Positions 2,579 to 42,672 of a stretch of 55,665 bases of DNA are shown piece after piece; positions within the stretch are counted from its first letter, which is position 1, and every line of letters starts with the position of its first letter. Made by a program: the position numbers and the translations under genes. Source of the stretch: Myxococcota bacterium. Its GTDB lineage: Bacteria; Myxococcota_C; UBA6777. Where the stretch lies: the NCBI GenBank assembly GCA_023150835.1, contig JAKLKB010000031.1, positions 1 to 55,665 on the forward strand, read 5' to 3'. Below the pieces are notes generated by a model that was not told the DNA's origin, did not search any database, and saw only the letters and a list, made by a program, of their open reading frames with translations.

Positions 2579-3012
2579 ATACGGTATCCGAGTGATGTGT
2601 GATCGAAGGAGAGTGCGTAGACGCCCTGTAATAGGGCAGCCACAGGGGGCATTTGATCCAACTAATTCATTTCGAGTTCAAACCTGCGAACGATCATATC
2701 GGACAGTGCGGGGTTTCGCACCTCACCCCTGTCAAAGGCGGACGTCCCCATGACCCACGGGCGCAAACAAGGTTTGCTGCGCGTTATGGGGAAAGCAAAG
2801 CCAAAGTCTCTGCCGTCCGTAAGCTTTTTTCCCCCACCTCGCCTCTGCGACAGCAGGGAGAGGGGGGCTGGGGGGGGTGAGGGTCAAACGACGTATTGCC
2901 ATTTTTTTCAACAAAATCAAATTCTTCGTAAAAATGACGTCCAATTAGTTGGTCCAAGTACACACCTGTCTGCCCCTACTTCTTTACGATCACACAATGG
3001 GCGGATTTCGTA
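2579..3012 (+). mobile_element. Palindromic MITE-like element, copy 1 (split by an insert)
   Basis: The left half (2579-2644) begins ATACGGTATCCGAG and carries TGTGTGATCGAAGG and a GGGCAGCC arm. The right half (2961-3012) carries CTGCCCCTAC, CGATCACACAATGG and ends GCGGATTTCGTA. The two halves together equal one member of the dispersed family also found at 34016 and 42559. They are separated by about 316 bp with its own inverted-repeat ends. The left half continues as the CAGGGGGC core subtype while the right half is the CACCTGTCTG subtype, so a rearrangement between copies is an alternative to simple insertion. Confidence 0.7.
2645..2960. mobile_element. Inverted-repeat insert inside MITE copy 1
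   Basis: Near its ends are TTGATCCAACTAATT (2653-2667) and AATTAGTTGGTCCAA (2943-2957), inverted repeats matching at 14 of 15 positions. The segment is bounded by CACA at 2641-2644 and 2961-2964, which could be a target duplication or the residue of a palindrome. Inside lies a G-rich stretch (about 2850-2885) of the kind found in many bacterial intergenic palindromes. It has no plausible transposase, so it would have to move in trans. The length and short direct repeats fit a small non-autonomous element, but with one copy in view this remains an inference. Confidence 0.45.
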
Positions 3013-3217
3013 CGATACGGTGGAGTCGACCGTTTTGGGCATCACCTTCAAAGACTCGGGTTCGTTTAACCTTGAACGACCCTAGCTGCTTTTCTTTGCC
3101 GCGACAGCCGCTTGTTTTTCCTTGCGCGGGTGGATGTGGATCGCTATCTTCGGGGCTTTGGGCGTGTGAATCGGCATTCACCTGCGGATCGCAGAGGACG
3201 GATAGGAGGGGCGCGTG

Positions 3218-4282
3218 ATGGAAAAGATGCCCGATCTCTCGCAAGATGTGTGGTACATTCACCCTTATCGGGAGATTCAAAACGCGGCAGGGCCGTTTTA
3301 TGCGATGGTGGGGCGAGTGGAGGGGATACAAGCCGCCGCGCCGAGCCTTTCGTTGCTGGTATCGAGCAGCACCCACCCCCCTAGCTATTCATTCGCCAAG
3401 ATGCCGGAAACAACAGAAGAATTAGAGCAGACGTGTGAGATCCTGCTTCATAGCCAGACGCCGCGTTTGCGATATGGAGGTCAAGATCGCAGCATTATCC
3501 GCCGATTGGGAAACAGCCCGCTCTACAGCGATCACGTTCTACATGGCGGCGAAGTCGTTTTTTACGGGGACGATGGGCTTCCTCTGTTATCACAAACGGC
3601 GCGAAAACTGCCGCGAGTCGCGTCGTTGCGAAGACTGCCTGCTGCGTATGCCCCTGCCGATATCGCGCACCGTTGGATGAATGATGTTGCGCTGCGCTGC
3701 ATCAAGCGCGAAGAGGCAACAGAGCACACGCACCTGAACTCTTTGCGAAACCTGCTTAAACAAAAGCTGTTGTGGCTACAAGATCCGCAACGATACACAG
3801 AATTTCCACGCCAGATCGATCAATTTTACTGGAAAGCGGCCAATGCTTTTTCTGCGCCGCCCCCCCATCTTCGGCGTGATCTGGATGACGCGCATCCGTT
3901 GACGTTGATCATGGTGCGCATGGCTTGTCAGGTATCGCTGCGCTTTGTGTACTGGATCGGCTTTTTGGCGGAACTCCACGCAAGTTATTACGCGATGCGA
4001 GAAGAGAACACCGCTCCACCTCGACGCCCGAGTCGTGCGTGGATGACCGAATGCGCCGAGTGGATGCGAAAATATTATGATATCGCTTGCCTTCCATCCT
4101 CGCTTTTGCACCGCAGAGAAGAACTGCGCAAACAACGCCAACAATTAGATGCTTTCCTTCAAAGCCTCCGAGATGCCCGTCAAAATCTTCTGCACACTCT
4201 CCATCAACAAGCCCACCATTGCGCGACCCAATGGAAAAAGCGCCAAGCAGACCTAGAGACCGCCCTTTTCGAGAGCATCTAG
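3218..4282 (+). CDS. Hypothetical protein with C-terminal coiled coil
   Basis: I do not recognise this 354-residue protein. The start is taken as ATG 3218 because AGGAGG at 3204-3209 lies 8 bases upstream; GTG 3215 is a near-equivalent choice. No signal peptide is visible. A moderately hydrophobic stretch around residues 230-260 (Val-Arg-Met-Ala, then a Trp-Ile-Gly-Phe-Leu run) could be one membrane or buried helix. The last 60 or so residues are Gln/Arg/Leu-rich and probably coiled coil. It lies about 100 bp upstream of the TerC-family gene on the same strand and may be co-transcribed with it. Base and codon use look like the neighbours. Confidence 0.6.
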   Translation: MEKMPDLSQDVWYIHPYREIQNAAGPFYAMVGRVEGIQAAAPSLSLLVSSSTHPPSYSFAKMPETTEELEQTCEILLHSQTPRLRYGGQDRSIIRRLGNSPLYSDHVLHGGEVVFYGDDGLPLLSQTARKLPRVASLRRLPAAYAPADIAHRWMNDVALRCIKREEATEHTHLNSLRNLLKQKLLWLQDPQRYTEFPRQIDQFYWKAANAFSAPPPHLRRDLDDAHPLTLIMVRMACQVSLRFVYWIGFLAELHASYYAMREENTAPPRRPSRAWMTECAEWMRKYYDIACLPSSLLHRREELRKQRQQLDAFLQSLRDARQNLLHTLHQQAHHCATQWKKRQADLETALFESI

Positions 4283-4384
4283 CCTCGTGTACGTTGCGGT
4301 GCTATGGTCTGCTGCTTTTTTCTGCAACGCGTGTGTTTGCGCGTTGTGGTACTATCCCTTGCCACAATCCGTCGGAGGTGTGCG

Positions 4385-5425
4385 TTGTCTGTGCAGAGTT
4401 GGATGTGGATCCTCTTTCATGTCTTTTTGGTATTGATGCTTGCGTTGGACTTGGGACTATTCCATCGCAAAAGCCATCAGATCGACGTGAAAGAAGCGTT
4501 GGTTTGGAGCGTCGTGTGGATCAGTTTGGCCATGCTTTTTAACGTGGGGATCTACTTTTGGCGGGGTTCGGAGTTTGCTATTCAATTTTTTACAGGCTAC
4601 GTCCTCGAAAAGTCTCTAAGTGTCGATAATCTTTTTGTTTTTATGTTGATCTTCTCCTTCTTTAAGGTGCCTGCGGCTTATCAACACAAAGTCCTTGCGT
4701 GGGGGATCTTTGGCGCGTTGATCATGCGTGCGATCATGATCTTTGCGGGGGTTCAATTGATCAACCGCTTCCATTGGATCCTGTATCTCTTCGGTGCTTT
4801 CTTGATCTTTACAGGCATCAAGATGGCCCTCGAAAAAGAAACAGGCGTTCATCCCGAAGACAACCCCGTGATCAAACTGGTGCGTCGCCTCTTTCGTGTC
4901 ACCGAAACCTACCAAGACGATCGGATCTTTGTCCGCCAAAATGGCGTGCTGTGGGCAACGCCTTTGTTTATCGTCATCGCAGTTGTGGAAGCGACCGACG
5001 TCGTGTTTGCGGTGGACTCGATCCCTGCGGTGCTTGCGATCTCACGCGACCCGTTCGTTGTGTACACCTCCAACGTCTTCGCGATCCTTGGGTTGCGTTC
5101 GTTGTACTTTGCGCTTGCGGGCGTGATGGATCGTTTTCACTTGCTCAAGTTTGGCCTTGCTGCGGTGCTTACATTCGTCGGCGTCAAGATGCTGATCGAT
5201 GGCTGGTATCACATCCCCACGCATACTTCTTTGGTGGTGGTGGTGAGTATGCTCGGCACGTCGGTGATCGCGTCCTTGCTGATCGCGCCCACAGAAGAAG
5301 AGATCGTCCACCTCCCCCCGGGCAGCTTCCCCGAACAGCCGCCCTATGAAACCTTGAGCGAGGCCGAGATGAGCAGCCCTGCCCTTCCTGACCCCGATCA
5401 CCCCCACGACAAGTCTTCCTCCTAA
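4385..5425 (+). CDS. TerC/Alx-family integral membrane protein
   Basis: This is a TerC-family protein of about 346 residues with seven or more hydrophobic segments. Diagnostic family motifs are visible: EKSLSVDNLFVF in the second helix region and VEATDVVFAVDSIPAV further on, whose acidic residues are thought to bind metal ions. Members export manganese or other divalent metals, or assist metal loading of exported proteins (E. coli Alx, Bacillus MeeF/MeeY). The start is uncertain: TTG 4385 has GGAGG 6 bases upstream, while ATG 4403 is a more conventional codon. The C-terminal tail (last 40 residues) is Pro/Glu/Ser-rich and cytosolic-looking. No yybP-ykoY-type manganese riboswitch was recognised in the 100-bp leader. 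A palindromic element starts immediately after the stop codon. Confidence 0.88.
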   Translation: MSVQSWMWILFHVFLVLMLALDLGLFHRKSHQIDVKEALVWSVVWISLAMLFNVGIYFWRGSEFAIQFFTGYVLEKSLSVDNLFVFMLIFSFFKVPAAYQHKVLAWGIFGALIMRAIMIFAGVQLINRFHWILYLFGAFLIFTGIKMALEKETGVHPEDNPVIKLVRRLFRVTETYQDDRIFVRQNGVLWATPLFIVIAVVEATDVVFAVDSIPAVLAISRDPFVVYTSNVFAILGLRSLYFALAGVMDRFHLLKFGLAAVLTFVGVKMLIDGWYHIPTHTSLVVVVSMLGTSVIASLLIAPTEEEIVHLPPGSFPEQPPYETLSEAEMSSPALPDPDHPHDKSSS

Positions 5426-5426
5426 G

Positions 5427-5547
5427 CGCTCTCCGAGAGAAGTGTGCTCAAAGGGTCAGTGCGATCCGCGATGGGCGTGCTGTGGTTGGGCAGCCACAGG
5501 GGGCTGCCCCTACATCTTCCGTCTACTACGATGGGCGGATTTCGTAT
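5427..5547 (+). mobile_element. Palindromic MITE-like element, copy 2
   Basis: The copy begins with a degenerate left end (CTCTCCGAGAGAAGTGTG aligning with TATCCGAGTGATGTGTG of copy 1). It has the core hairpin GGGCAGCC-ACAGG-GGCTGCCC at about 5488-5510 and ends GATGGGCGGATTTCGTAT at 5547. It abuts the stop codon of the TerC-family gene and occupies most of the space before the S9 peptidase gene. Confidence 0.7.
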
Positions 5548-5650
5548 TAGCCCCCTCCGCCATCGTCTGACTCGAAACAAACACCGTTCCCTGAAACACT
5601 CGCTGTTCCAACAACTAACCCGCTTCTCCAACAACCCGAAGGAGCCGCCC

Positions 5651-8600
5651 ATGCCCATACGCCCCCCTCAACACACACCACCGCGATCTTTTCTGCCCTG
5701 CTGCACCGCTGCGACGGTGCTTTTGACATCCGCTGTCTTTGGCTTCGCAAGCCCCCGTGCCCACGCCGCCCCTCCCAAAGCCTCGGATGCTACGGCACAA
5801 CCGCACCCCCCCAAAGACTCGGATGCTACGGCACAATCAACGCATCCCAAAGCCTCGGATGCTATGAAATCCGCTCATGGCGTGATCGCAAAACGTAGGG
5901 GCAGCCCCCTGTGGCTGCCCAACCAGAGGGCGTCTACAGCGGATCGCACGACCCTTCGATCACACACCTCTCGAATATCGGATGCTACGGCACAACCAAC
6001 ACCCTCCAAATCTCCCAACGCAACGAAACGAACGACCACAACTGTGTCTGCGGCCCCTTCGATTGTTCGTAAAGTTCGCCCCACCACAAAGCCCGCAGCA
6101 TCGGCATCTCTCGCCAAAACCAAGATCAAGCCAAAAACTCCTGCTGCCAAGGCGGCCAAGACACCGAAGCCTGCACCACGTCCGTTGCGTGCGTGGCTAC
6201 TGCTTGGGCCTACGCCGCTACCGTTGCCGCTGTTTTCAAAAGACAAAGAAGGCTCTTACAAAGAAACCCAACTGCTCGCTGACGAACACCTTGATCAAGA
6301 GCGTTTGCGCCCACAGATCGGGCAAGAAGTGCCTTGGTTAGGTGGTCGATCTTTGCGTTGGCGTCCTTGGGGGGGTGGTTCGATCTCTCGCAAAAGCCCC
6401 CTTCCACAAGCCGCGTGGGCCGCAACATGGCTGCACACTACGCGCTACACCGAAGGCACGTTGATCTTGCGGTCCCATCAGCGTTTGCGTGTCTTGCTGG
6501 ATGGAAAAACGATCAGCACACAAGCCACTTGCACACCTGCCAAAGCCTCCAAACCCGCTGCTGTGACGGCCTCTTCAGCGGCCAAACCCACCCCGCCTCC
6601 TGCCTCGTTGCCCACCACCGCAACGGATCCGCGTGACCTGTTGATGTTGCGCATGGCCCAGATCCTCGAACGCCAGTCCCAACTGATCGAACGCCAAACG
6701 GCGATGCTTGGGGGGATGCTCCAACAAGCCCAAGCCCAAGCCAAAAGCCCCACCATCCCGACTCTACGGGTTTCTTTAAAGCTTACTCCCGGTCTGCATC
6801 GGATCGTGATCAAGACGCTTGCGACCCAAGATTGTCTACCGCATTGGGGGCTGGAAGCAACTCTTGAAGCTACCGATGCACCGAGCCTTCGAGCGATCAC
6901 CGCAGAGCGAATACCTACTTTTTACCACTCGATCGACTTCGTGCTGTATCGCAAGTACATCACAGCCCACAGCCTCTCTCCCGATGGAAAGCACATCGCC
7001 CTCTTGATGCAAAAGCTCCATCCCAACGGGCATCACGAATACTGGAGCGAGTTGCGCGATGCCCAACACGGTCATCTGCTACATTCGCTGCGTGCTGTCG
7101 GGGCGCTGCGCGATCTGCAATGGTCCCCCAATGGCCGCTATTACAGCTTTTCAACGATCATCAAAGGGTTAGGCGCGATCTGGCGGGTGGATCGGCAACA
7201 CGGAAGCGTGCGCTTGCTGCGTTCGGGCCTTCGGGGACTTTGGGGACACGCATGGGTCCATGACAGCCGAACGATCGTCTATAACGCCAGCCTACCGCTC
7301 ACTCCGACCGAGACCGAAAAAGCTGGACTCCTACGCTTGCGCGGGATGTTCGATCGCCTGCCTTGGCATCGCAACCGCAGCCATATCTATGCGATGTCTG
7401 CGGATGGAACGATGCACCTGCGCCTTACAGCGGGCTATTGGGGCAACGACACCCTCAAACTGCATCCAAGCGCCCCCAAGATCCTTTTTCGACGCTCGAT
7501 CCCCGACGACAAGACCCGCCCTTTTCGCAAAAGCGCTCTGTTTGAACTCGATCTGCGAACCTTGCAGATCACCCGTATCCTCGATAACTTGGGCAGCTTT
7601 TTCGGTGCGTCCTACGCCATGAACGGCGACGCCATCTTGATCAGCGGCGGTCCTTCGCTGTTTGGCATCCTCGGCCATGCACCCGATCTTCCACCCAGCA
7701 CCGTTCCCAACGACTACGACGGCGAGATCTACCTGTATCACCGCAAGACCAAGCAGATCACTTGCCCCACCCGCACCTTCGATCCAAGCGTCGAGCGGGC
7801 TTTTTGGCATCCGCTTACCCAAAAGATCTACCTCAACGCGCTTCACCGAACCCGCCGACTGTTGTATGAACTCGATCCGAAAAACGGACAGATCCGCCCA
7901 CTTGCCCATGCCAAGGGCCTCGATATCCTAAGCCAACTCAGAGCAGGCCGCCAAACCCACTCGCTCACCTACATCGGCAGCGGTCTCCAACACACCGAAA
8001 GCCTCTACCGCCTTGATTTGCGCACAGGCCGCTCCAAGCTGCTTTACGATCCCAACCAAGCCGCGTCCCAACACCTCCAACTCGGACCGATCGCCGACTG
8101 GGACGTCACCCTCAAACAAGGCGAACAACGCGACGGACACGTCTTTTACCCCCCCGGCTTTGACCCCCGAAAACGCTACCCCTTGATCGTGTATTACTAC
8201 GGCGGAACTTACCCCGTCACGCGCACCTTCGATGGGCGCTATCCCTTCCATCTTTGGGCTGCACAAGGATACGTCGTGTATGTCCTCCAACCCAGCGGTG
8301 CGATCGGCTTTGGACAACGCTTCTCCGCACGCCACGTCAACGAATGGGGAACCCTCGTTCCTTCCGAGATCATCCAGTCCACCCGACTGTTTCTTCGCGC
8401 CCATCCCTTCATCGATCCCAAGCGTGTCGGCTGTATCGGCGCAAGCTACGGCGGCTTTACCACGATGAGCGTCGTCACCAAAACCCGCCTCTTTGCTGCC
8501 GCCATCAGCCACGCAGGGATCAGCAACATCCCAAGCTACTGGGGCGGCGGATACTGGGGCTACCTCTATAGCGCCATCTCCGCAGCCCATCGCTACCCGT

Positions 8601-8908: not shown

Positions 8909-8927
8909 TCGTTGTCTTTTGGTCTTG

Positions 8928-9197
8928 TGGGGCGCTGCCCCATACGCGTTAGGTTAAGGCGGAAATACCGGAGAGTCGAGGATGATCGCTCTTTCTTTTG
9001 TCGGCCCCCCCTCATTCCCCCCGGCCAACGGGGGGGAAGTTGGAGCAGGCAGCGTCTGCATTTCGTGCATACAGCGCACGTCATGAAAAAACAAAATCCC
9101 CGATGCTTCCGACTTTCGCTCCCTCCCCTGTTCACGGGGGAGGGCGGGGTGGGGGGCTTTCCTCCGCTTCACCTAACGCCTATGGGGCGCTGCCCCA
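8928..9197. mobile_element. 270-bp element with ~35-bp inverted-repeat ends
   Basis: The left arm 8928-8963 begins TGGGGCGCTGCCCCATA and continues CGCGTTAGGTTAAGGCGGA. The right arm 9163-9197 is its near-perfect inverse (TCCGCTTCACCTAACGCC then TATGGGGCGCTGCCCCA). The interior has two G/C-run palindromes (about 9003-9035 and 9118-9155) and no credible gene. The TGGGGC/GCCCCA ends are themselves palindromic. It is most likely a non-autonomous mobile element or a large intergenic palindrome; no target duplication was identified. Confidence 0.6.
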
Positions 9198-9487
9198 AAC
9201 CCCGCCATAGACTTTCGCCCCTTGACCCCGTATCGACGGTGGAAGTCTTGTGCTCGAAACGGCGACTCTGGCCTTTCGATACACCACGACCACGCCTTGT
9301 TTTCAAAACGCAGCCAGCCGCACACTTTTTCGCACGCCTTGTTCCCCAAAAGCCCGTGTTCGCGCCATGTCAAGCGGGATCGTCGTTGGTTTGAAAAAAC
9401 ATCCGATCGCTCCGCCAATACGGGGTCCATAGAGCCGCGCTAAGAAAGTGGGGTATGGGGTGAAACCCCACGAAAAATCCAACTATA
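9198..9487. other. Intergenic region between convergent genes
   Basis: No gene is supported here. TGACCCCGTAT near 9223 and ATACGGGGTCC near 9418 form another inverted pair about 190 bp apart. The GCGCGGCTC-type sequence next to the right arm recurs at 21042. At the 3' end of the helicase gene (9450-9473, read on the minus strand) is a GTGGGG...CCCCAC hairpin followed by TTTCTT, possibly a weak terminator. Confidence 0.4.
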
Positions 9488-11314: not shown

Positions 11315-11784
11315 GTTTTTTTCTCGTCCCAAACGGCGGGCGCGAAGCCCGAGACGAAGGGTTGTAGGAGTTGGTGCGAAAAAAGGACACGCGGACGATC
11401 AGCGATATCCTTTTTGGCAGATGGGCGGGAAGAAAAGCAGCGGATCAACAGCAGGTGGGTCAGACTGGGTGGATCGTGCTTGAGCAGATCGCACGGTATG
11501 GACGGCCATACACAACGAAAACACTCGGGAACTCGCCTAAACGACGCGCACCTTATACCAAAGGCTGGCATTTATGCAAGCCCAAAGGTGTATTCTTTTG
11601 ATCGATGAGTGGCATACACCAAAACTAGGCAGCAGGAACCCGAAGGTTTTTATTTGGAATCGAGGAATTATACGAAATCCACCCGTTGTGTTGCCGTAAA
11701 GATGTAGGGGCAGCCCCCCGTGGCTGCCCTAGAATAGGTCGTCTACGTACTATACCTTTGTGTACACATCACTCGGATATCGTA
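11315..11784. other. Intergenic region with promoter, leader and MITE copy
   Basis: No gene is supported. The stretch holds the presumed leader and promoter of DEAD-box gene 1 and, at 11670-11785, a copy of the palindromic element. Short open frames here lack ribosome sites and coding character. Confidence 0.6.
11552..11579 (-). promoter_or_regulatory. Candidate sigma70-type promoter of DEAD-box gene 1
   Basis: Read on the minus strand, TTGCAT (11574-11579) and TATAAG (11552-11557) are separated by 16 bases. If used, transcription starts near 11545 and leaves a leader of about 230 bases before the helicase start, reminiscent of long leaders on cold-shock helicase mRNAs. Promoter use is inferred from hexamers only. 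Confidence 0.45.
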
Positions 11785-11785
11785 T
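11670..11785 (-). mobile_element. Palindromic MITE-like element, copy 4
   Basis: The copy runs from ATACGAAATCC (11670) to GGATATCGTAT (11785), ends that are near-perfect inverse repeats. The core is GGGGCAGCCCCCCGTGGC, followed by a variable segment, TACACATCACTC and the right end. It overlaps the last base of the stop codon of the adjacent minus-strand gene, so the element again abuts a gene end. Confidence 0.78.
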
Positions 11786-12447: not shown

Positions 12448-12508
12448 CTGCATTCTCTCCGTCTCTACTCTAGGCTCTTGTGCTTTTGGATTTTTTCGGT
12501 GGCACGTT

Positions 12509-18877: not shown

Positions 18878-18884
18878 TCACGCC

Positions 18885-21064: not shown

Positions 21065-21123
21065 CGTAGCGTCTACAACAAATCGTGCCGATGTTTCGCA
21101 CACATATCTCTCGGATATCGTAT
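21065..21123 (-). mobile_element. Palindromic MITE-like element, copy 5 (right end only)
   Basis: Only the terminal part is recognisable: GTAGCGTCTAC, CACACATATCTCTCGG and ATATCGTAT, matching the right ends at 11785 and 27151. The core hairpin and left arm are missing, being replaced by unrelated repeat sequence. It lies directly upstream of the Cys-rich lipoprotein gene. Confidence 0.55.
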
Positions 21124-26762: not shown

Positions 26763-27383
26763 CCGATGTTCCTCCTATGCTTTCTTGCCTATGGATGAAT
26801 CGCTTGCGTGGCCTTTTGCGAACGAAAGACCCGTGCCTTCTGTGCCTCTGCAACAAGACAGCAGAAACCAGCAGATCTTGACAAACAAGAAAGTATCGTA
26901 AACAGAACCTTGCACAACGCGCAAGATATCGCCCACACAAGATCCTACAAAAACACAAAAAAAGATCGCTGATTCTCTTTTTGTATTCGTACGTTGCACG
27001 CCTTTTAAGCAATGCCATAACATTCCCCAAAAACCACATCCATACGAAATCCGCCCACAGTGTGATCGCAAAACGTAGGGGCAGCCCCCTGTGGCTGCCC
27101 AACAATCGGGCGTCTACGTACTCTCCTGTACACACCTCTCGGATTTCGCATCATTCATCCAAAACCATGCAAACAATCGATAAACCGCTCGAAAGACCTC
27201 ACGAAGTAGACGCCGCTCTCAGAAAAATGTCGAAGATTTCCAATGCTTGCGATACCTACCCTGCGATCTTTGCGGGGTTGGCGAACTTTCAACGGTTTTG
27301 TTTTTTGTTGATCAGTCGATAAAAATATCCATAAAAATCTTTTTTAATCGAAGGTATTTCGTTTGAAGAAGCGGGGGGGCGAT
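26763..27383. other. Intergenic region upstream of the MYXO-CTERM gene
   Basis: No gene is supported. It contains a palindromic element (27042-27151) and an AT-rich stretch at about 27298-27362. A possible minus-strand promoter-like arrangement lies near 26890-26925 (TTGTGC, 16 bases, TACTTT), which could serve the MYXO-CTERM gene. Confidence 0.45.
27042..27151 (-). mobile_element. Palindromic MITE-like element, copy 6
   Basis: It runs from ATACGAAATCCGCCC to TCTCGGATTTCGCAT, a nearly inverted pair. The core is GGGGCAGCCCCCTGTGGC, with GTGTGATCGC on the left. Length is 110 bp. It lies between two minus-strand genes, far from either coding end. Confidence 0.78.
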
Positions 27384-30300: not shown

Positions 30301-32132
30301 AAAGCATCTTCGTCTTGTTGATGGAGTGCGATGATCTGTTTGCGCAACCAAACGCTTTCTTTTCGGACGGCGCGCATCTCTTCTTGGAGAGCGTCGTTAT
30401 CGCCCTCCTGTTGGGCGTCTTGCAGCGCAGCATTGGCTTTTCGTAAAGCGTCGGCCTCTTCCAAAGAGGCTTTTTGCTGTCGGCGCAGTTCTTCGGCTTC
30501 GTCGCGAGCACGTTTTTGTTCGGAGCGCAAACGCTCGATATCTTCGCGTGATCGCTGTTGTTCGGAGCGCAAACGCTCGGTCTCTTCGCGTGATCGCTGT
30601 TGTTCGGAGCGCAAACGCTCGGTCTCTTCGCGTGATCGCTGTTGTTCGGAGCGCAAACGCTCGGTCTCTTCGCGTGATCGCTGTTGTTCGGAGCGCAAAC
30701 GCTCGGCCTCTTCGCGTGATCGCTGTTGTTCGTTGCGCAAGCGTTCGGCTTCGTCGCGAGCCTGTTGCTGTTCGGAGCGCAAGCGCTCGATCTCGCTTTG
30801 AAGCTGTTTTTTTTCGGTGCGCCAGTTCTGTTCTTCGTCGCGTGAGCGCTTGGGTTCGGCCTCAGTCTCGGGGCGGGAGATGTGGACGGGTTCTCTCGAT
30901 TGGATCAGCGCATCAAGTTCGGCTTGGGCGTTGCGAACGGAGAAAGCACTGGCCTCTTTGTTGGCGATCTTGGACTCGGGCGCACCGAGGGGAACCAGCG
31001 AAGGGAAGGGTGGGAGAGCTTGCATCTCCGAGGTTTTGGGTCGCGGGGGTTCGGAGGAAGTCACCAAAGCCGAAGGGGGTGGCTGAGTGAGCGGGCGTAC
31101 GGGGATGGAGGGATTGGTTTGTGGACGGGGCGGCAGCGGGGCTCCTGTGAGTGATGGAAACGGCGCGAGTCCGCCTGTTTGAGGCGAGAAAGGAGAGTTT
31201 TTGCTAGAGAGGGAAACCGCTCGTAGTTCGGTCGAAGCGGCAGCGGCGATTTCGGGAGAAGAGCCTGCCCATGCGCGCCCAATCGAGGCAGAAGCTCCTG
31301 CGACAGGTAGCGGTGTTTGCACCCCCGAAGCAAGGGAGCTTGTGGAGTGTTGCACAACAAAAGCATCGGTCGCAGCGTTTTCACCCCGCGCCAAGGCGGG
31401 GGCAGGCGTCGGGCGAGCAGGAACTTTCGCGATGATGGTGCGATCCGCATCGTCGAGGTCATCGTCTGAAAACCCCGAAGCTGGCCCTTGATAGATCTGT
31501 CCGGCTCGTTCTTCGATTGCTTCTCGGATGGCGCGGCGGTGCTTTTCTTCGGTGATATCTTCGGCGCTCAACAAGAGATCTCCGTCTTCGTCGTCGAGAT
31601 CGAGCTCTTCTTCTTCCGAACCTTCGGGGACCAACGTGCGATCGACATCCGACGGGCCGCCGCCCAGTTTGGCGCGTTGTCCTGCGGCGGGTAAGTTGGG
31701 GTTGGTGTCGGAGGTTCCTTGTCCCGCACTTGGGCGTTCGGCGGCTTGCGCGGAAAGCATCAATCCCCCCAGCATTCCGAGCAATTCGTCATGGTTCAAT
31801 GGCATCATCAAGTAGCCTTGCGCTCGGGTTCTCAGGCGTTGGTGTTGCGAGAAGCTTTCTTCGGTGGCTTGGGACGAATACAACACCAACGGTATCCCTC
31901 GCAAGCCATCACGCCGCTTGATCCGATTGCACACCGAATAGCCGTTGCGGCGGGGGATCTCGACACGCAGCAAGATCACATCAGGCCGACGGGCCGGATC
32001 TTCTAGCTCGTTGAGAGCGATCAATCCATCCGCGACCAATTCCACTTCGTAACCGCCTTGCAAAAGCACGCGCTGTAACGCTTGGGATGTCGTTTTGTCC
32101 GATTCAATCAGAAGTATCCGCGCCTTTGCCAT
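27384..32132 (-). CDS. FrzS/AglZ-like pseudo-receiver with giant coiled coil
   Basis: The protein has 1582 residues; ATG 32132 has AAGGTGGG about 6 bases upstream. Residues 1-125 form a CheY-like receiver fold (ARILLIESDKTT at the start, RRPDVILLRVEIP, IPLVLYSS, YLMMPLN), but the phosphoacceptor Asp is Arg56 and the conserved Lys is Met110. A disordered region (about 130-430) is rich in Pro/Ser and acidic residues and contains repeated DADRT/SPTR-like motifs. From about 430 to the end the protein is heptad-rich coiled coil (Glu/Gln/Arg/Leu), partly built from 14-residue tandem units. Myxobacterial FrzS and AglZ have this same receiver-plus-coil plan and act in polarity and motility. The analogy is good, but identity is not proven. 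The gene is divergent from the M48 peptidase. Confidence 0.85.
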   Translation of the reverse strand: MAKARILLIESDKTTSQALQRVLLQGGYEVELVADGLIALNELEDPARRPDVILLRVEIPRRNGYSVCNRIKRRDGLRGIPLVLYSSQATEESFSQHQRLRTRAQGYLMMPLNHDELLGMLGGLMLSAQAAERPSAGQGTSDTNPNLPAAGQRAKLGGGPSDVDRTLVPEGSEEEELDLDDEDGDLLLSAEDITEEKHRRAIREAIEERAGQIYQGPASGFSDDDLDDADRTIIAKVPARPTPAPALARGENAATDAFVVQHSTSSLASGVQTPLPVAGASASIGRAWAGSSPEIAAAASTELRAVSLSSKNSPFSPQTGGLAPFPSLTGAPLPPRPQTNPSIPVRPLTQPPPSALVTSSEPPRPKTSEMQALPPFPSLVPLGAPESKIANKEASAFSVRNAQAELDALIQSREPVHISRPETEAEPKRSRDEEQNWRTEKKQLQSEIERLRSEQQQARDEAERLRNEQQRSREEAERLRSEQQRSREETERLRSEQQRSREETERLRSEQQRSREETERLRSEQQRSREDIERLRSEQKRARDEAEELRRQQKASLEEADALRKANAALQDAQQEGDNDALQEEMRAVRKESVWLRKQIIALHQQDEDAFALYPELLAKALAAQQMDGLQEELERLRHENKALRDPSASTKTPSAKGKAKPTTEQALASEEDDAPTRLSAVATQADGDDSEVPTRILHDAADEDSGESPTRVLFQTHSIDDSTQISSLQDENGRLQRLLQEAQAQHEASQDETNDLYARITDLERERQRLQIEVDAQAEKAAQHARSHSDALSKRGGEVEALEEQLSSLAIEVDDARKQVLFYQGLCNERETMLETQRAELLETQAALEEQIQAACELRGELAGFRTQVHAQSLNDDELLSQLGERERELQSLREEINRLGDDHGYLSSRYREMEAQLDALKQTAREDEHALHSIRIDKERLEKQLHQHADERERLKESHAEERRALLEEHDAAMQVLREELGRLRVDLETARETGYRALSQAETTKHTRIEALESERRALLGKLEKADAAIFEAQEQGHRLKSAQQQLRDEITQLQEDLDASRADARNRLEVEDLLRQQIASLQDQQATLEEELDRAQGKLQNIGDSTEQMEAELVALRHRNVVLEQEKFDVQERTERLESEARSLRELLHAEQHNRLSESEQQERVLDQLHHAEKSLDDWKQRAILLETETFQLKQKTTTQQAELTRLHAEQERLTHQLAAHEEHIETSQITHQSALETERRQAQEVMQHLEREHENAMLRLSAEHQEALRLHQEHSLRQEQALERRFQQQERSFEALLARELDARERQHAEIIAGIRQEHALDVERLLAEQDKDRRQARQTQQEILAEQEISFHSEKRTLREAFQREADALHAAHQQEMEALQIALQEQSHQILAQSEKELRQLRQQIRTQKEESVRDRQAREAEWQAESEKRIEEAERRARLRFEAIIEGLEQRERDLAAQIKKTESALASAREAEQSAALGYNTLQNQVDDLRGKLSDLESLRRHERNQIDLIKREFEQKNRTLEQERDELKSHIEKTSTQSNRLQQQVAQEKAKKDQALDALQHALSMLREREDG
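30541..30750 (-). repeat. 42-bp tandem repeat in coiled-coil region
   Basis: Five units of 42 bp start at 30541, 30583, 30625, 30667 and 30709 (first bases TCTTCGCGTGATCGCTG). The first four differ at only a base or two; the fifth is more divergent. Read on the minus strand, each encodes 14 residues such as RLRSEQQRSREETE, two heptads. More divergent units flank the array on both sides. Confidence 0.9.
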
Positions 32133-33636: not shown

Positions 33637-33676
33637 TACCCCCCATATCACGTCAACGACCCACACCGAAAGGGGT

Positions 33677-33696
33677 GGGCTTGTGAGAGCAAGCCC
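33677..33696 (+). terminator. Hairpin after M48 peptidase gene
   Basis: GGGCTTG (33677-33683) pairs with CAAGCCC (33690-33696) around a 6-base loop. It is followed by GTTGAC and a C-run, not a T-run, so intrinsic termination would be weak. Confidence 0.35.
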
Positions 33697-33801
33697 CGTT
33701 GACCCCCCCCCAACGAGTCTGCCGAGATTTCGGCGGTGATCAACGAGGTTTTCTTGCCCTGCACCGCTGCTCTATCTGTCCACAGACCACGCAGATATCT
33801 C

Positions 33802-33830
33802 TTGACAGATCCGCGCTGTTGTGCTACACA
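33802..33830 (+). promoter_or_regulatory. Sigma70 promoter of tRNA-Val
   Basis: TTGACA (33802-33807) is a perfect -35 and is followed at exactly 17 bases by TACACA (33825-33830). The tRNA begins 17 bases further on. Position and spacing strongly favour a genuine housekeeping promoter. Confidence 0.85.
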
Positions 33831-33847
33831 CTCAATCCGTTCTTTTT

Positions 33848-33920
<73 letters not shown>

Positions 33921-33936
33921 CAATCTTTTCCCCTCC

Positions 33937-33963
33937 AAAGCGACACCTCTTGTCGCTTTTTTT
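33937..33963 (+). terminator. Intrinsic terminator after tRNA-Val
   Basis: AAAGCGACA-CCTCT-TGTCGCTTT forms a 9-bp stem, with the T-run continuing to 33963. It lies 16 bases after the tRNA end and is a textbook factor-independent terminator. Confidence 0.9.
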
Positions 33964-34015
33964 GTTTCTCCCCCTCTGCTCTCTTTTGGTTGATGTTCCA
34001 CGAAAAAAAGGAATG

Positions 34016-34129
34016 ATACGAGATCCGCAAGATGTGTGATCGAAGGATCGTGCGTAGATGCCCTACGGTTGGGCAACCACACCTGTCTGCCCCTACGTTT
34101 TACGATCACACGATGGGCGGATCTCGTAT
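34016..34129 (+). mobile_element. Palindromic MITE-like element, copy 7 (intact)
   Basis: This 114-bp copy has perfect terminal inverted repeats, ATACGAGATCCGC and GCGGATCTCGTAT. Inside are TGTGTGATCG and CGATCACACGA arms, then GGGCAACC and CTGCCCC around CACACCTGT. Most of the length can pair with itself. It is one of the two best-preserved members and lies in the gap before the C-terminal end of the membrane-protein gene. Confidence 0.85.
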
Positions 34130-34151
34130 GACGCGGTGGCTCGATCGGCGA

Positions 34152-37100: not shown

Positions 37101-38390
37101 CAGCCTCGTCAACTCCAACGCGGCGCTACGTTTTCGCAGATGTTGGCTTTTTTCGGCACTGGCATCTCGCAAAAGACGTGCTTCGCGTTGGCATCGCTCG
37201 CTGGCTCGGCGCAGATCTTCTTCGTCGAGGTACGACAGCCAAGCAGGGCGGCACCAAGCAGGGAGGGCGTGGGCGTCGCATGGATACGCCGTTTTTTCAA
37301 GCGAGCGAACAGCTTGAACCTCGGAAGCATCGGCCGCAGAGAGCGCAAGGTGCTCCACCGAAGTGACCGACAGATCCGCAGGGATGAGGACGTGGTGAGA
37401 AGCAGGAGCCTCCGCGATCTTGTCGGCAGGATCGGAGTCTTCATCCCCTTGTTCAAGATGACGAGACCACCACTGCAACGCGATCTCGGCCTTGTCCTCG
37501 TTGCGAACAGGCGTCGAAAAGTGCGCAGTATCGGCCATCGAAAGCAACATCGCGCAGCGATCTTCGCCTCGTGCCAACTGCCGAGGGATCGGCGTTTCGA
37601 CTGCGGGGCAGCACGCGGAAACGATATCTTCGATCGGAAGGCCCACTTCACGCAGCCAAGCATCTAACGCTCCTGCGTGGATGCTTGGGAACAACTCTGC
37701 ACGCCAAGAAGATGCAAAGACCCCAAGACCCGCCCACCACGCAACGACCGTTGTCGCGACCTCTTCGTCGTCCAGAGCATCTACCAAAAAACGTTCGCGA
37801 GAAAAAAAACCGCGCATCCCTTCAAACGCCGTGTGTCCAATCACAGCCCGAAGCCCTGCGGCCCTTCGATCCAGCCGTTCCCAAGCCCCCATCAACGCTC
37901 CGATGCTGCACCAAGACCAATAACGCCACCAGATATGCGCCGCAGGCGCTCGCTTGAGTTGGCGATGCGTCAACTCTTCGATCAACAAGACCTTTGATGG
38001 AAGTGTTTTGCCAAGGATTCCTTTGGCGAGCTCGGGTTCTTCTTCTTCGAGGATCTGCACAAATGCAGCAGAATCCATCCGAACTACGGGCGATTCGGGC
38101 GGGGGTTCTAGGCGTTTTAATCCAAAGTGGTGCAAAAAGATACGCCGCCGCGAACGCTGATGAAATACAAACACCCCTTTTTCGGGCGACTGGATCACAG
38201 CACGAAGCTGCTCGCTCGTCAGATGCGTCGAAGGATGAGGAGAAATGGATCCTTGCAAGCGCGACACGTCCAAATTCGTCGAAATGTCTGGGTGGGCGGT
38301 AGGCTCGGTCAACCGTGAAGGCGATGCGGGGCTTGAAGATGGCGGCGTTTCAACATCCGCCGAGCGAAGGTGCGGGGATTTTTCGGACAT
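34152..38390 (-). CDS. Very large membrane protein of unknown function
   Basis: I do not recognise the family of this 1412-residue protein. The start ATG 38390 follows AAGGAAG by about 9 bases. The first 60 residues are Ser/Pro-rich and disordered. Residues about 110-820 are largely helical and soluble-looking apart from a Trp-rich stretch near 440. At least six strong hydrophobic segments fall between about 850 and 1160 (for example LLLPFGGAVALLMTFGIVV and FLSVLVWAGFLYFLL). A cytosolic C-terminal domain of about 230 residues contains conserved-looking charged motifs such as YYDEDKVHRVHHDLHH and FVCEEIDTDRTHLD. The central motif FSFSDMRDVISRNDLRLP is striking and may be family-defining. It lies 118 bp downstream of clpA on the same strand and may belong to that transcript. 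Confidence 0.75.
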   Translation of the reverse strand: MSEKSPHLRSADVETPPSSSPASPSRLTEPTAHPDISTNLDVSRLQGSISPHPSTHLTSEQLRAVIQSPEKGVFVFHQRSRRRIFLHHFGLKRLEPPPESPVVRMDSAAFVQILEEEEPELAKGILGKTLPSKVLLIEELTHRQLKRAPAAHIWWRYWSWCSIGALMGAWERLDRRAAGLRAVIGHTAFEGMRGFFSRERFLVDALDDEEVATTVVAWWAGLGVFASSWRAELFPSIHAGALDAWLREVGLPIEDIVSACCPAVETPIPRQLARGEDRCAMLLSMADTAHFSTPVRNEDKAEIALQWWSRHLEQGDEDSDPADKIAEAPASHHVLIPADLSVTSVEHLALSAADASEVQAVRSLEKTAYPCDAHALPAWCRPAWLSYLDEEDLRRASERCQREARLLRDASAEKSQHLRKRSAALELTRLVISSLWWWFQVRVWGRWISVMPFLTRTHRHAEAQDAAETANPPSPSKLQMFLLRFAARQALRTQVFEFVHSYRWAIAEEWRGNEAEAALQCGEAIRFFRGMVADEASRGFLNELIVQQQSYQNTLLTRFCEHYPTQGPALRSLSELIALLLSVPLSSRLGRLAAASLKSMQRSYLDRERLFFVTRLARWIRHKGQVPLQIPLDHYGMIRAMHYLQVTLRRLEGLPLPEQRLERLLIPIHQANHYIEQSVRETFGPRLIEAMNKVGLVPASLREEVAQARIRDDLMDLVVRRGQFSFSDMRDVISRNDLRLPTSTWRDFLHGDILIKLNEALQPRFHDIYRSGEIYLRLNQRFSALAFGTIWGRWFCLNLLLPFGGAVALLMTFGIVVEYFNAFLRNHILFYFSYSDILVVRESVPVWVMDATLYSLKLPKVHLWDYVGFQSVLVLGLLMYGVMHTETGWDLFRRILSSFGMALRFLFIEGPRWLYRHPWLQLVLTHPRAFFVYRHIVLPVFVALAFTFVGSTAWRVTMRNLYPQILHYQVPFGWQFLSVLVWAGFLYFLLNTTIGRAVWDWLAYRLLALWSQIRDHLVVGLIRWTLEVFRRFLIALDYAIYRVDDMLRFHEGEGRAVIWIKSILQSLWFGVTYLIRLSVNLVAEPQLNPVKHFPIVTISHKLLIPATIVIITVMESAGFARSVIWIVGLFFQFGLPGLCGFLAWELKENWKLFRANQPASPAAVRVGSHGETVDALLRRGFHSGTLPRAYEKLFKAYKKSFLYYDEDKVHRVHHDLHHVAEDVRRFVDRDLIAALHRDPAFEHSGLRFVCEEIDTDRTHLDAFLEIRQEQTTLYRLRLRYELENGWLLASLRSLSTPSQGALRLTLDQQSACDQHLVFFLQKSGVRLVRSKIEEWLGFYLRGFEIVTPGAATSERYAEYWVEKDRVRVSVHAPGAQLRALHYELTSDGKLREPAPTIVLEHQDAILPRHPVS

Positions 38391-38508
38391 ACTAGAAGCC
38401 TTCCTTTTCCATGCGGCGATCTCGCCGTTGTTTTTTGCGATCGCGCTTCTCCGCGATCTTCGTCCCCCTCTTGTTCAAAACGGCCCTTGCAACCGCGATC
38501 ATCAGAGT

Positions 38509-40896
38509 TTAGGAATGGACCGCAGCAGCTCGTCGTCGGGCTGCTTTTCGACGCGGCGGAGATTCTTGGGGCACGTCGAAGGTAAATGCGAAATTGTCTT
38601 CTTGGACATCGACATCCACGCGCCCGCCCTGCCGCAGCGGGCCAAACAACAGCGCATCGCTTAACGGGATCTTCAGTTGTTCGCGGATCACACGCGCCAA
38701 CGGACGCGCACCCATCGCAGGATCATAACCAAGCGCAGCAAGCCGCGTCTTGGCCTCTTGCGAGATTTGAAGTTGCACGCCTTGTTGTGCAAGCTGTGCG
38801 CGCAGTTTGTCCGTAAACTTCGCCACGATCTGCTCCATCACATCGCGTTGAAGCGGCGCAAATCGGATGCGTGCATCCAGCCGATTGCGAAACTCTGGGC
38901 TAAAAGCCGCACGATACGCCTGTTCGTCCGAAAGGCTTTGTTCACGTGAACCAAAACCGATCGGCGAGGATGTCGCTTCGCGAGCGCCGATATTCGAGGT
39001 CATGATCAAGATGACGTGCCGAAAATCCGTGCTGCGCCCGTTGTGGTCCGTCAATTTCCCATAATCCATCACTTGCAGCAAGATGTGGAAAAGTTCAGGG
39101 TGGGCTTTTTCGATCTCGTCGAGCAAGATCACGGCGTAGGGGGATTGGTGGACAGCATCGGTTAATAGCCCTCCTTGCTCAAACCCGACATAGCCGGGGG
39201 GCGCACCGATCAAACGGCTCACCGCGTGGCGCTCCATGTACTCGGACATATCGAAACGCAACAGCGGAACCCCTAGTGTTTTGGCGAGTTGACGTGCCAC
39301 TTCTGTTTTTCCAACCCCTGTCGGCCCCGTAAACAAAAAGCTGCCAAGGGGTTTTTCTTGTTCCGAAAGACCTGCCCTTGCGAGTTTGACCGCAGACACG
39401 ACTTGCATCACGGCCTCATCCTGACCAAACACCGCACCTTTCAGATCAGCCTCAAGGGACTGCAAGCGTTGTCGATCCGTCGTGCTGACTTCCGCCGCAG
39501 GGATGCGTGCGATCCGAGCAACCACGCGCTGCACAGCCTCTTCGGTCACGATTGGACGGGCCTTTCGATGCAGCTTGGTCCACGCCCCCGCCTCGTCTAA
39601 CAAATCGATGGCTTTGTCGGGCAGCTTTCGTTCGTGCAGATAGCGCACAGACAAATAGACGGATTCTTCGAGGGATTCTTTGGTGTAATGGACCTTATGG
39701 AATTCTTCGTAGCTGCGTTGCAATCCGCGCAAGATCAACAGCGTTTCATCGATCGACGGTTCGCCCACATCGATGCGCTGAAAGCGCCGCGCCAGCGCCC
39801 GATCCTTTTCGATATGTTGGCGGAACTCCTTGTAAGAAGTGCTCCCCATACAACGCAGCCGCCCCGATGTTAGCGCAGGTTTTAACATATTTGCCGCGTC
39901 GACCGTCGATCCCGAAGTGGCTCCCGCACCGATGATGCTGTGGATCTCGTCGATATAAAGGATGGCGTGGGGCTGACGTTCCAAAGCCCGCAACACTTGT
40001 TTAAACCGCGATTCAAAGTCCCCCCGATAGCGCGTTCCCGCCAACAAAGCCCCCATGTCCAAGCTGTAGATCGCCGCCCGCTTGAGGGAGTCAGGAACAT
40101 CACCCGCAACGATACGTTGCGCAAGTCCTTCGGCCATCGCGGTCTTGCCGACGCCTGATTCTCCCACAAACAACGGGTGATTTTTGCGGCGACGCGCCAA
40201 CACTTGAATCGCTCGCTCCAATTCTTCTTCTCGCCCCACCAGCGGATCAAGCTTTCCCAGCGCCGCCATCCGATTCAATAAGACGGCGTAAGCCTCCAGC
40301 GGATCGACGTCTTCTTCTTTGGTCTTGTTGTTTTCTTCGGGAACAGGTGGCGGAGGCTCCACCAGCCAAGGGTTGCCCTCCTCTTCGTCGCTCGCTTCGT
40401 TGTCTTCGTCGCCGTAACCGTCGTCTTCTCCGTCGCCATCGTCCTCTTCAAACGATGGCTCGCCGTGAAGTTCTTCGTACAGACTCAAGGCCAACATGAT
40501 ATCAAGGCGCGTCAAACCAAGCCGCTCAAACAATCCCACCGCGAAGCTTTGGGGTTCATCAAACAGCGAAACCAGCACAACACCTCGCGTCACTTCGATC
40601 TGCTCGTCCTGATGGGCGCGTTGGACCGCACGATTCAGAACGCGGCGCAATCCATCGGAAGGACGGGGATCCACATCATGGTTTCTCGGTGCGGGATTGA
40701 CGCGTTTGTCAAGAAAATGCAGCAGCTCGTCCTTCATCAAATCCACGGGTACACCCGCATATTCCAACACCGCATGGATCTCTTCGTTGAGCAACATCGC
40801 ATAAAGCAGATGCTCGATCCCGATGTACTCGTGACGCCGTTCGCGTGCGTCTTGAAAAGCGGTATCGATGGCGACTTGGATATCTTGCGATAACAT
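38509..40896 (-). CDS. clpA: ATP-dependent Clp protease ATP-binding subunit ClpA
   Basis: The protein has 795 residues from ATG 40896 (GAGGAA about 6 bases upstream). The N-terminal ClpN repeats are visible ([29 protein letters not shown]). An unusually acidic linker ([20 protein letters not shown]) precedes the two AAA+ modules. The first has Walker A GESGVGKT and the second GPTGVGKT, with [11 protein letters not shown] as the second Walker B and typical C-terminal [16 protein letters not shown]. ClpA unfolds substrates and feeds them to ClpP, with ClpS delivering N-degron proteins. clpS lies 21 bp upstream on the same strand. No clpP is in the window. Confidence 0.96.
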
Positions 40897-40917
40897 GGGC
40901 TTCCTCATGGATAGAGG

Positions 40918-41232
40918 TTATTCGGGTTCCATCGTCACCAAAAACGGGTGTCCTTGTTCACGCGCGTAGTCCGTGACCTGATGGACTTTGGTCTCCGCGA
41001 TATCATAGGTATAGATCCCTGCCACTGCATGTCCCTTGTGGTGAACAGCCAACATCAATTCCGTCGCTTCCGCTTCGTTCTTGCGGAAAAACCGAACCAA
41101 GATCTCGATCACAAAACCCATCGTTGTGTAGTCGTCGTTGTGCAAGATCACCTTGTACAAACGCGGCGGAACCACCCGCTCCTCCAAATCAACGCCTGTT
41201 TCCTCTTGTTCTTTTCGTTGCTTTTTGCTCAT
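40918..41232 (-). CDS. clpS: ClpS adaptor protein
   Basis: A start at ATG 41232 gives a 104-residue protein, close to the usual ClpS length, with GAGGG 4-5 bases upstream. ATG 41250 or 41271 would lengthen it. The core LYKVILHNDDYTTMGFVIEIL matches the N-degron-binding site region of ClpS (NDD acidic residues and a Met gate). It continues with AVHHKGHAVAGIYTYDIAETK, a typical ClpA-contact segment. ClpS delivers proteins with hydrophobic N-terminal residues to ClpAP. It is the first gene of the clpSA pair. Confidence 0.95.
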   Translation of the reverse strand: MSKKQRKEQEETGVDLEERVVPPRLYKVILHNDDYTTMGFVIEILVRFFRKNEAEATELMLAVHHKGHAVAGIYTYDIAETKVHQVTDYAREQGHPFLVTMEPE

Positions 41233-41264
41233 TCGACCCTCACTCCGCATCGGCGCAGCATCCT

Positions 41265-41283
41265 CGTTCAAAACCTTTGAACG
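41265..41283. promoter_or_regulatory. Palindrome upstream of clpS
   Basis: CGTTCAAA-ACC-TTTGAACG is a perfect 8-bp inverted repeat around a 3-base centre, 33 bases upstream of the proposed clpS start. It could be an operator for a dimeric repressor or a small mRNA hairpin. If ATG 41271 were used it would overlap the start, which argues for the downstream start. Confidence 0.45.
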
Positions 41284-41485
41284 TCGAAATGTTCTTCTTG
41301 CGCCTTTGCCTTGAAGCTACAACTTGCTCCCACAAAAACAAGCGAAAAAGATCGCTTTTCCTGCGCAGTTTTTGTGCCCTCCCACTTTTCATCACCCACC
41401 CAACCCCCGTAAGATACCCCACAAAGTCCACGCTCCAAGGCAAAGGCACAATGCCTTGGAGCTTATCGCGCAAGAGGATCACGAA

Positions 41486-42559
41486 ATGGAAACCTTCGAT
41501 ATCCCTGATCGGCTCGGACGTTACCGCCTTATCCAACGAGTGGCCGTCGGCGGCATGGGTGAGATCTTTTATGCTACCGCTCAAGAACAGAGCGGTTCTC
41601 TTCGCGAATTGGCCATCAAACGACTGCACCCCGAAAACAAAGAACATCCCACTTTTATCAAGATGTTCTTAAACGAAGGCCGTATCTCCGGGCTATTAAA
41701 GCACCCACACATCGTTCAAACTTACGAGTTCGCCCAAGACGGTAGCGAGCTCTTTATGGTGATGGAGTGGATCGATGGTCCCGATCTACAACATCTTTTG
41801 CGCCTCGGACAAGAGCAAGGCCGTCCGCTCTCGGTCTCTCACGCCATCGAGATCGCCATACAGGCGCTGCGTGCGCTCCATTACGCCCACACCCTCGATA
41901 TCCAAGGCCAACCCATGCACCTCACGCACCGCGATATCTCTCCCCACAATCTCTTGCTCAATCGCAAAGGCGTCGTCAAAGTGACGGACTTTGGGATCGC
42001 TCGGATGGCCGACCACCTTTCGTTGACCGCCACAGGCGTCCTCAAAGGCAAAGTCCCTTACATGGCCCCCGAGCAAACACGCAGCAGCAAAGTCGGCCCC
42101 CAAGCCGATATCTTTGCGATGGGTGTGATCCTGTGGGAGATGCTTTGCCATCGCCGCTTATTTTCCGAACCCAACGACCTTCGTTGCATCGATCTTGTTC
42201 GCCACGCCCCGATCCCTTGGCCCAACACGTTGCAGCCCGCTGTCCCCGAAGAAGTCGCCGAGATCGTCATGTGGGCGCTTCAACGCGACCCCCAAAAACG
42301 CGCTCCCAACGCAGACACACTTCTCCATTATCTCAGCGTTTTGGCCGAAAACCTCCCTCCCACCGAACCTTTGCACGAATACATCCGCTCTCTCGACAAC
42401 CCCGAGCCCTCTCTCGCAGGCACCCAAGAGATCGAACATTGGCACCCTCCGACCCCGCACACCACCACCGAATGCGTCACCCTCGCCGAACACGATCATC
42501 CCACCCATCCAGCCGATGGCGAGATGCTTTCCCGCTTTCCACGCAAAAAAGACCCGTAA
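41486..42559 (+). CDS. Cytosolic Ser/Thr protein kinase
   Basis: The protein has 357 residues; ATG 41486 has AGAGG about 8 bases upstream. It is a Hanks-type kinase with all key motifs: glycine loop VAVGGMGEIF, invariant Lys in LAIKRL, catalytic HRDISPHNLLL, DFGIARMAD, and KVPYMAPEQT in the activation segment. The HRDISPHN version of the loop is common among myxobacterial kinases. The kinase domain fills residues about 10-290. A Pro/His-rich C-terminal tail of about 65 residues follows, without a transmembrane helix, so the protein is soluble. It starts just upstream of a MITE copy, whose left end overlaps the stop codon. Divergent from clpS. Targets unknown. Confidence 0.93.
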   Translation: METFDIPDRLGRYRLIQRVAVGGMGEIFYATAQEQSGSLRELAIKRLHPENKEHPTFIKMFLNEGRISGLLKHPHIVQTYEFAQDGSELFMVMEWIDGPDLQHLLRLGQEQGRPLSVSHAIEIAIQALRALHYAHTLDIQGQPMHLTHRDISPHNLLLNRKGVVKVTDFGIARMADHLSLTATGVLKGKVPYMAPEQTRSSKVGPQADIFAMGVILWEMLCHRRLFSEPNDLRCIDLVRHAPIPWPNTLQPAVPEEVAEIVMWALQRDPQKRAPNADTLLHYLSVLAENLPPTEPLHEYIRSLDNPEPSLAGTQEIEHWHPPTPHTTTECVTLAEHDHPTHPADGEMLSRFPRKKDP

Positions 42560-42672
42560 TACGATATCCGCAAGATGTGTGATCGAAGGATCGTGCGTAG
42601 ATGCCCTACGGTTGGGCAGCCACACCTGTCTGCCCCTACGTTTTGCGATCACACAACGGGCGGATCTCGCAT
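42559..42672 (+). mobile_element. Palindromic MITE-like element, copy 8 (intact)
   Basis: This 114-bp copy starts ATACGATATCCGC and ends GCGGATCTCGCAT. It is nearly identical to copy 7 (34016-34129) in sequence and length, including GATGTGTGATCGAAGG, GGGCAGCC and CACCTGTCTGCCCC. Its first base is the last base of the kinase stop codon. Confidence 0.85.

What the first reader, a model, noticed from the sequence alone, without database searches (positions are those of the whole stretch)
2579..42672. Dispersed 110-120-bp palindromic element in eight whole or partial copies
Copies at 2579, 5427, 5863, 11670, 21065 (partial), 27042, 34016 and 42559 share terminal inverted repeats ATACGA[A/G]ATCCGC, inner arms TGTGTGATCG/CGATCACAC and a core hairpin based on GGGCAGCC/GGCTGCCC or GGGCAG/CTGCCC. 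Two core subtypes exist (ACAGGGGGC and CACCTGTCTG). The inverted pairing extends over most of the element, so a transcript would fold into one long hairpin. That is one copy about every 7 kb, with no transposase in view. Palindromes of the GTAGGGGC type are, as I recall, widespread in bacterial genomes, so this may be a lineage-specific member of a broader class.
Basis: partly seen in the sequence, partly recalled or inferred. Interest (0 to 1): 0.7.

Follow-up and report, generated by a model that had tools for sequence, protein, structure and literature searches.

The report
Transposon-like hairpin carrying swappable REP palindromes
A roughly 115-letter mobile DNA repeat present in hundreds of copies in this bacterium has transposon-like ends that duplicate a 3-letter target (T-any-A), and its centre is a second, separately known kind of palindromic repeat that can be swapped for others, so it looks like one tiny transposon carrying another as cargo.

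Summary
The window holds eight whole or partial copies of a ~112-122 bp element, and the 7.6 Mb genome holds about 500 left ends. Two layers are visible. The outer layer is a MITE with inverted ends TACGA[A/G]ATCCGC / CGGATATCGTA and a 3-bp target duplication, mostly TNA: 31 of 58 full copies have identical flanks (shuffle mean 8.8), and this recurs in a sister genome. At four window sites the sister, at ~92% identity, has the joined empty site; another copy is shared by both genomes. One window copy is a 123-nt in-frame insertion in a peptidase gene. The inner layer is a GTAG-tagged REP pair of the RAYT type. Other copies of the same carrier hold different REP cores, and unrelated phyla have the same kind of core without these ends. 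Most probably the unit is moved by an IS5/IS1031-type DDE transposase, not by the RAYT, but no transposase with matching ends was found. Covariation and Rfam give no support for an RNA role. The closest precedent is Anabaena GTAG-15 dimers inside long palindromes (PMC3733652). Verdict: a new variant of a known kind.

The parts
2579..2650 (-). first half (in window order) of a carrier copy, ending inside the REP core; TTA flank
2650..2950 (.). unrelated ~300-bp repeat (ends ATTTGATCCAACTAATT / AATTAGTTGGTCC) nested in the 2579 copy; 97.7% identical copy at L090:14968-15265; exact limits approximate
2951..3012 (-). other half of the split carrier copy (core subtype ACACCTGTCTG plus end GGGCGGATTTCGTA)
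5428..5547 (-). older, degenerate carrier copy, present at the same place in sister genome G001
5863..5982 (+). 120-bp carrier copy flanked by TGC/TGC; 123-nt in-frame insertion adding 41 aa to an S9 peptidase precursor; absent in G001
11671..11784 (+). full carrier copy, TSD TTA/TTA; empty site in G001
21065..21123 (+). partial copy (right arm only), 3' end CGGATATCGTAT
27043..27150 (+). full carrier copy, flanks CCA/TCA; empty site in G001
34017..34128 (-). full carrier copy, TSD TGA/TGA, core subtype GGGCAGACAGGTGTGG; absent in G001 (flank there also altered)
42560..42671 (-). full carrier copy, TSD TAA/TAA; empty site with a single TAA in G001
11704..11729 (+). example of the GTAG REP core (GTAGGGGCAGCCCCCCGTGGCTGCCC) inside a carrier; the inverted partner ends ...GTCTAC

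Best explanation
The element is a composite. The outside is a non-autonomous DNA transposon (MITE) with ends TACGA[A/G]ATCCGC...CGGATATCGTA. It inserts mostly at TNA and duplicates those 3 bp, as IS1031-type members of the IS5 family do. The inside is a GTAG-headed REP pair of the kind associated with RAYT (TnpA-REP) transposases. The inferred mechanism: a DDE transposase acting in trans recognised the inverted ends and moved the whole unit, REP cargo included, across the genome after this species and its sister diverged. The REP core arrived separately and has been replaced by other REP types within the same ends. Shown here: ends, target duplication, empty sites, alternative cores, genus restriction. 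Inferred: the DDE enzyme, the original REP capture by a RAYT, and direction (gain rather than loss) at each site.
For: Copy number: 554 cores and 516 left ends in 7.56 Mb, 0 reversed controls. TSD: 58 full-length copies, 31 with identical 3-nt flanks, shuffle mean 8.8 and maximum 20 in 20,000; among 37 with TNA on both sides, 29 have the same N, shuffle mean 9.3, maximum 22; identity peaks at exactly three positions. Replicated in the sister genome: 16 of 34, shuffle mean 6.8, maximum 15 in 5,000. Empty sites: joined flanks match G001 at 5863 (88/90 nt), 11671, 27043 and 42560. Cores: same ends with a GGTTCGCGAACC REP (L080:6943-7042, TGA/TGA) and with REP heterodimers (L094:4777-4897, L074:57-178). 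GTAGGGGC hairpins lie near 76 of 80 RAYT relatives in many phyla, reversed control 1, and lack the TACGA ends in the unrelated genomes looked at. One RAYT gene in the genome. IS1031 members insert at TNA with a 3-bp repeat (PMC12016507).
Against: No transposase with these ends was found: PF01609, PF13340, PF13359 and PF13586 gave none flanked by them. The assembly is a 239-contig draft at 93% completeness, so absence is weak evidence. Without an outgroup at these loci, precise loss in G001 is not excluded. Most REP cores (48 of 59) sit in carriers, so REPs moving on their own here is little supported. The REP array next to the RAYT also lies in a degenerate carrier, so its adjacency may be chance.
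Confidence: 0.85

Rival explanations
1. It is purely a REPIN/BIME: the RAYT (Y1 tyrosine transposase) mobilises the whole ~115-bp unit as single-stranded DNA, and the outer arms are just conserved REPIN flanks.
For: GTAG heads in inverted orientation, one RAYT gene in the genome, REP arrays next to it and a REP within it; REP dimers of conserved spacing are typical of RAYT systems (PMC3733652, PMC3116915).
Against: A 3-bp target duplication with a TNA preference is not expected from IS200/IS605-type chemistry (general knowledge). The unit ends at TACGA...TCGTA, not at the GTAG heads. The sister genome has 127 cores but no Y1 match.
Confidence: 0.08
2. The element is kept mainly as a structured RNA (transcript hairpin) under selection, and mobility is secondary.
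For: Three of five window copies fold much better than shuffles; most window copies are intergenic.
Against: No covariation: 3 pairs with two-sided changes against 2.7 in shuffles, 1 of 22 in the predicted structure; no Rfam match; copies are absent at orthologous sites in the sister genome.
Confidence: 0.04
3. A sub-question within the best explanation, not an alternative to its MITE part: the REP core was built into the MITE once, long ago, and the 'alternative cores' are only mutational drift or recombination between copies, with no independent REP mobility.
For: 48 of 59 cores lie in carriers; intermediate cores exist (GGGCAGAC..GTCTGCCC, GGGCAGCCATGTGTGGCTGCCC).
Against: The GGTTCGCGAACC REP core is unrelated in stem sequence, is the same REP as found next to RAYTs elsewhere (e.g. 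L243, L246, L256), and appears both alone and as the partner of the GGGCAGCC REP.
Confidence: 0.3

Closest known systems
Anabaena variabilis GTAG-15 REP dimers inside long palindromes (Di Nocera et al. 2013, PMC3733652)
   Same: GTAG REP dimers sit inside a longer, lineage-specific palindrome, and that palindrome was not found without REPs.
   Different: Different palindrome (TATAGGA...TCCTATA). The passage read reports no target duplication, empty site or core exchange; here a 3-bp TNA duplication, empty sites and several core types are shown.
IS5-family MITEs, IS1031 subgroup type
   Same: Short inverted ends, no coding capacity, hundreds of copies, 3-bp TNA target duplication (TNA for IS1031: PMC12016507).
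   Different: No autonomous IS with the same ends was found; an internal REP pair is carried.
REPINs / BIMEs mobilised by RAYTs (PMC3116915, PMC2817692)
   Same: GTAG-headed hairpins in inverted pairs, a RAYT gene in the genome, tandem REP arrays.
   Different: The mobile unit extends ~30 bp beyond each REP to MITE ends with a target duplication.
Rickettsia palindromic elements (RPE) inserted in frame in proteins
   Same: A palindromic repeat inserted in frame and leaving the gene open (5863 copy).
   Different: Only one in-frame case was examined; sequence and ends are different.
BrickBuilt MITE of Porphyromonas (PMC4596501)
   Same: An IS5-like MITE whose interior is itself a repeat.
   Different: Its interior is a 23-nt minisatellite, not a REP pair; its target duplications vary in length.

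Membership tests
MITE | terminal inverted repeats | tested here: met
   TACGA[A/G]ATCCG with CGGATATCGTA, 95% of cells paired over 10 bp
MITE | target-site duplication | tested here: met
   3 bp, mostly TNA
MITE | presence/absence at orthologous sites | tested here: met
   four resolved empty sites in G001, one shared copy
MITE | no own transposase gene | tested here: met
   100-122 bp for most copies; longer ones hold nested or tandem repeats
IS5/IS1031-derived MITE | autonomous IS with the same ends | tested here: inconclusive
   none found in the draft genomes; an IS5-type remnant with TTA flanks but different ends lies next to carriers (L176)
GTAG REP / REPIN (core only) | GTAG head next to a hairpin, inverted pair | tested here: met
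   GTAG-GGGCAGCC..GGCTGCCC and ..GTCTAC
GTAG REP / REPIN (core only) | cognate RAYT in the genome | tested here: inconclusive
   one RAYT-like gene, NF047646 E 9e-16 but below that model's cut-off (58 vs 80 bits), PF01797 over cut-off; that it is the cognate one is not shown, and none was found in the sister genome
REPIN (whole element) | mobile unit bounded by the REPs, no target duplication | tested here: not met
   the unit ends at TACGA..TCGTA with a TNA duplication
REPIN (core only) | RAYT binds and moves this REP | not testable with these tools
   needs biochemistry
structured RNA element | covarying base pairs or Rfam match | tested here: not met

The most novel reading that the evidence does not exclude
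Two transposition systems of different chemistry are layered: RAYT-type REPs repeatedly enter or replace the centre of a DDE-type MITE, which then spreads them, so the MITE acts as an exchangeable vehicle for REPs. Related to this, RAYT genes of this group in many phyla keep a REP pair in frame inside their own coding sequence.
Probability: 0.4. Interest if true: 0.7.

Novelty: new variant of a known kind. Interest (0 to 1): 0.5.

Why it matters
How REPs spread, and why some sit inside larger palindromes, has been open since those palindromes were noted. This family gives target duplications, empty sites and exchanged cores in one genome, so 'REPs ride on MITEs' can be tested directly. It also adds one in-frame case to the question of how palindromic repeats become protein sequence.

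Tried and rejected
RAYT as mover of the whole unit: set aside because of the 3-bp duplication. RNA element: no covariation, no Rfam match. Search for the autonomous parent: PF01609 gave five loci, none an IS with these ends; PF13340 and PF13359 gave none; PF13586 gave one remnant, L176:1461-1881, with other ends (GAGGGTGTTTGCGAAAAAGTG). A scan of all held DNA for paired ends 200-4000 bp apart gave expanded carriers, carriers with nested inserts, and a few pairs not examined further. I first took the 5863 insertion for a frameshift; translation beside G001 showed it is in frame. Phage and plasmid carriage: no exact end pattern in IMG/VR, no plasmid match. The literature term GTAGGGGC returned unrelated papers. 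An N-terminal-only RAYT query to remove sampling bias gave only 1 viral and 3 plasmid loci, too few to use.

Full report
What was checked. Five are full-length copies (5863, 11671, 27043, 34017, 42560), one is older and degenerate (5428-5547), one is only an arm (21065-21123), and one (2579-3012) is split by a separate ~300-bp repeat that has a 97.7% identical copy elsewhere in the genome. The two core subtypes are real.

Abundance and range. The core has 554 matches and the left end 516 in the 7.56 Mb genome, with no match for the reversed patterns. The one genome of the same genus has 127 cores and 103 ends; three genomes of the same family have none of either. Cores of the GTAGGGGC...GCCC kind occur in unrelated genomes, there without the TACGA ends. 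So the ends appear restricted to the genus while the core type is widespread.

Outer layer: a MITE. In 761 kb of own-genome sequence, full-length core-bearing copies were delimited by their inverted ends only, without using the flanks. Of 58 such copies, 31 have identical 3-nt flanks (shuffle mean 8.8, maximum 20 of 20,000), mostly TNA; identity is confined to three positions. The sister genome repeats it: 16 of 34 (shuffle mean 6.8, maximum 15 of 5,000). Part of the own-genome sample was chosen because it held copies, which should not affect the flanks. Tandem head-to-tail pairs are separated by a single TNA. In G001, collinear at 89-94% DNA identity, joined flanks match the empty site at 5863 (88/90 nt), 11671, 27043 and 42560; 34017 is absent but its flank is also altered; 5428 is shared; 2579 and 21065 could not be resolved. 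I read these as insertions after the split, but no outgroup was used.

In-frame copy. At 5863 the element plus its TGC duplication is 123 nt and adds 41 residues after the signal peptide of a prolyl-oligopeptidase-family protein, leaving the frame open; G001 lacks it. The signal peptide is judged by eye. Whether the protein is made is unknown.

Inner layer: GTAG REPs. The core is a GTAG-headed hairpin (GGGCAGCC..GGCTGCCC) with an inverted partner ending in CTAC. Copies of the same carrier hold other cores: a GGTTCGCGAACC REP (L080:6943-7042, TSD TGA) and heterodimers of both types (L094:4777-4897, L074:57-178). In 532 kb, 48 of 59 cores have at least one carrier end nearby; at random positions the figures are 3% (left) and 9% (right). 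The remaining 11 are mostly tandem arrays. So within this genome the core travels almost entirely with the carrier.

The RAYT. The genome has one RAYT-like gene (L032:1450-2214 minus) with HUH motif and tyrosine helix in place by eye. Its 3' side has a five-copy 43-bp REP array, but a degenerate carrier arm precedes that array, so the adjacency may be coincidence. No Y1 match was found in the sister genome, which is 86% complete.

Mechanism. Shown: ends, duplication, empty sites, exchanged cores. Inferred: a DDE enzyme in trans. TNA with a 3-bp repeat is the stated habit of the IS1031 subgroup (PMC12016507), and an IS5-type remnant with TTA flanks lies next to carriers (L176), but its ends differ and no parent was found in the draft assemblies. 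Folding is strong in three of five window copies, yet pairs do not covary, so I see no support for an RNA-level role.

Comparison. Di Nocera et al. (PMC3733652) report Anabaena GTAG-15 dimers inside long palindromes, which is the nearest precedent. The present family differs in showing the carrier's target duplication, empty sites and more than one core. I file the whole as a new variant of a known kind, the outside as a MITE (IS5 origin not established), the core as GTAG REP.

Limits. Counts are from a draft assembly. REP capture by the RAYT is an inference from core type, not observed.

Noticed in passing
L192-L271 (80 relatives of the RAYT in L032:1450-2214): 62 of the 80 best RAYT relatives, from many phyla, carry GTAGGGGC REP hairpins inside their own coding sequence, first one a median 13 codons after the start of the MPNHxH motif, 45 as inverted pairs, frame open in 61. 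The query contained the REP-encoded stretch, so the 80 may be biased; I found no report of it in the papers searched.
   Followed up: partly
L032:1450-2214 (minus): The genome's own RAYT carries an in-frame tandem (GQAQI)n expansion of REP-like GGGCAGGCACA units.
   Followed up: partly
window 8929-9196; L079:11036-11401; L090:3767-4076: A ~250-bp repeat with inverted arms (ATASGCGTTAGGTTAAGG) sits inside carrier REP cores twice and at a GGGGCGCTGCCCC palindrome in the window, as if it targets REP hairpins; also many partial matches in G001.
   Followed up: partly
window 2650-2950; L090:14968-15265: ~300-bp repeat, 97.7% identical between two places, nested in a carrier in the window.
   Followed up: partly
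L176:1461-1881: Broken IS5-type transposase remnant with ends GAGGGTGTTTGCGAAAAAGTG and TTA flanks beside tandem carriers; in the sample 4 of 7 TNA-GAGGGTGT[CT]T ends abut a carrier end.
   Followed up: partly
L012, L019, L025: Three contig ends (C8, C17, C20) share the same carrier region, two of them stopping at the centre of a GGTTCGCGAACC hairpin, suggesting that REP palindromes break the assembly.
   Followed up: no
window 46102-46623 and 30451-30870: 18-bp and 42-bp tandem arrays in long ORFs.
   Followed up: no
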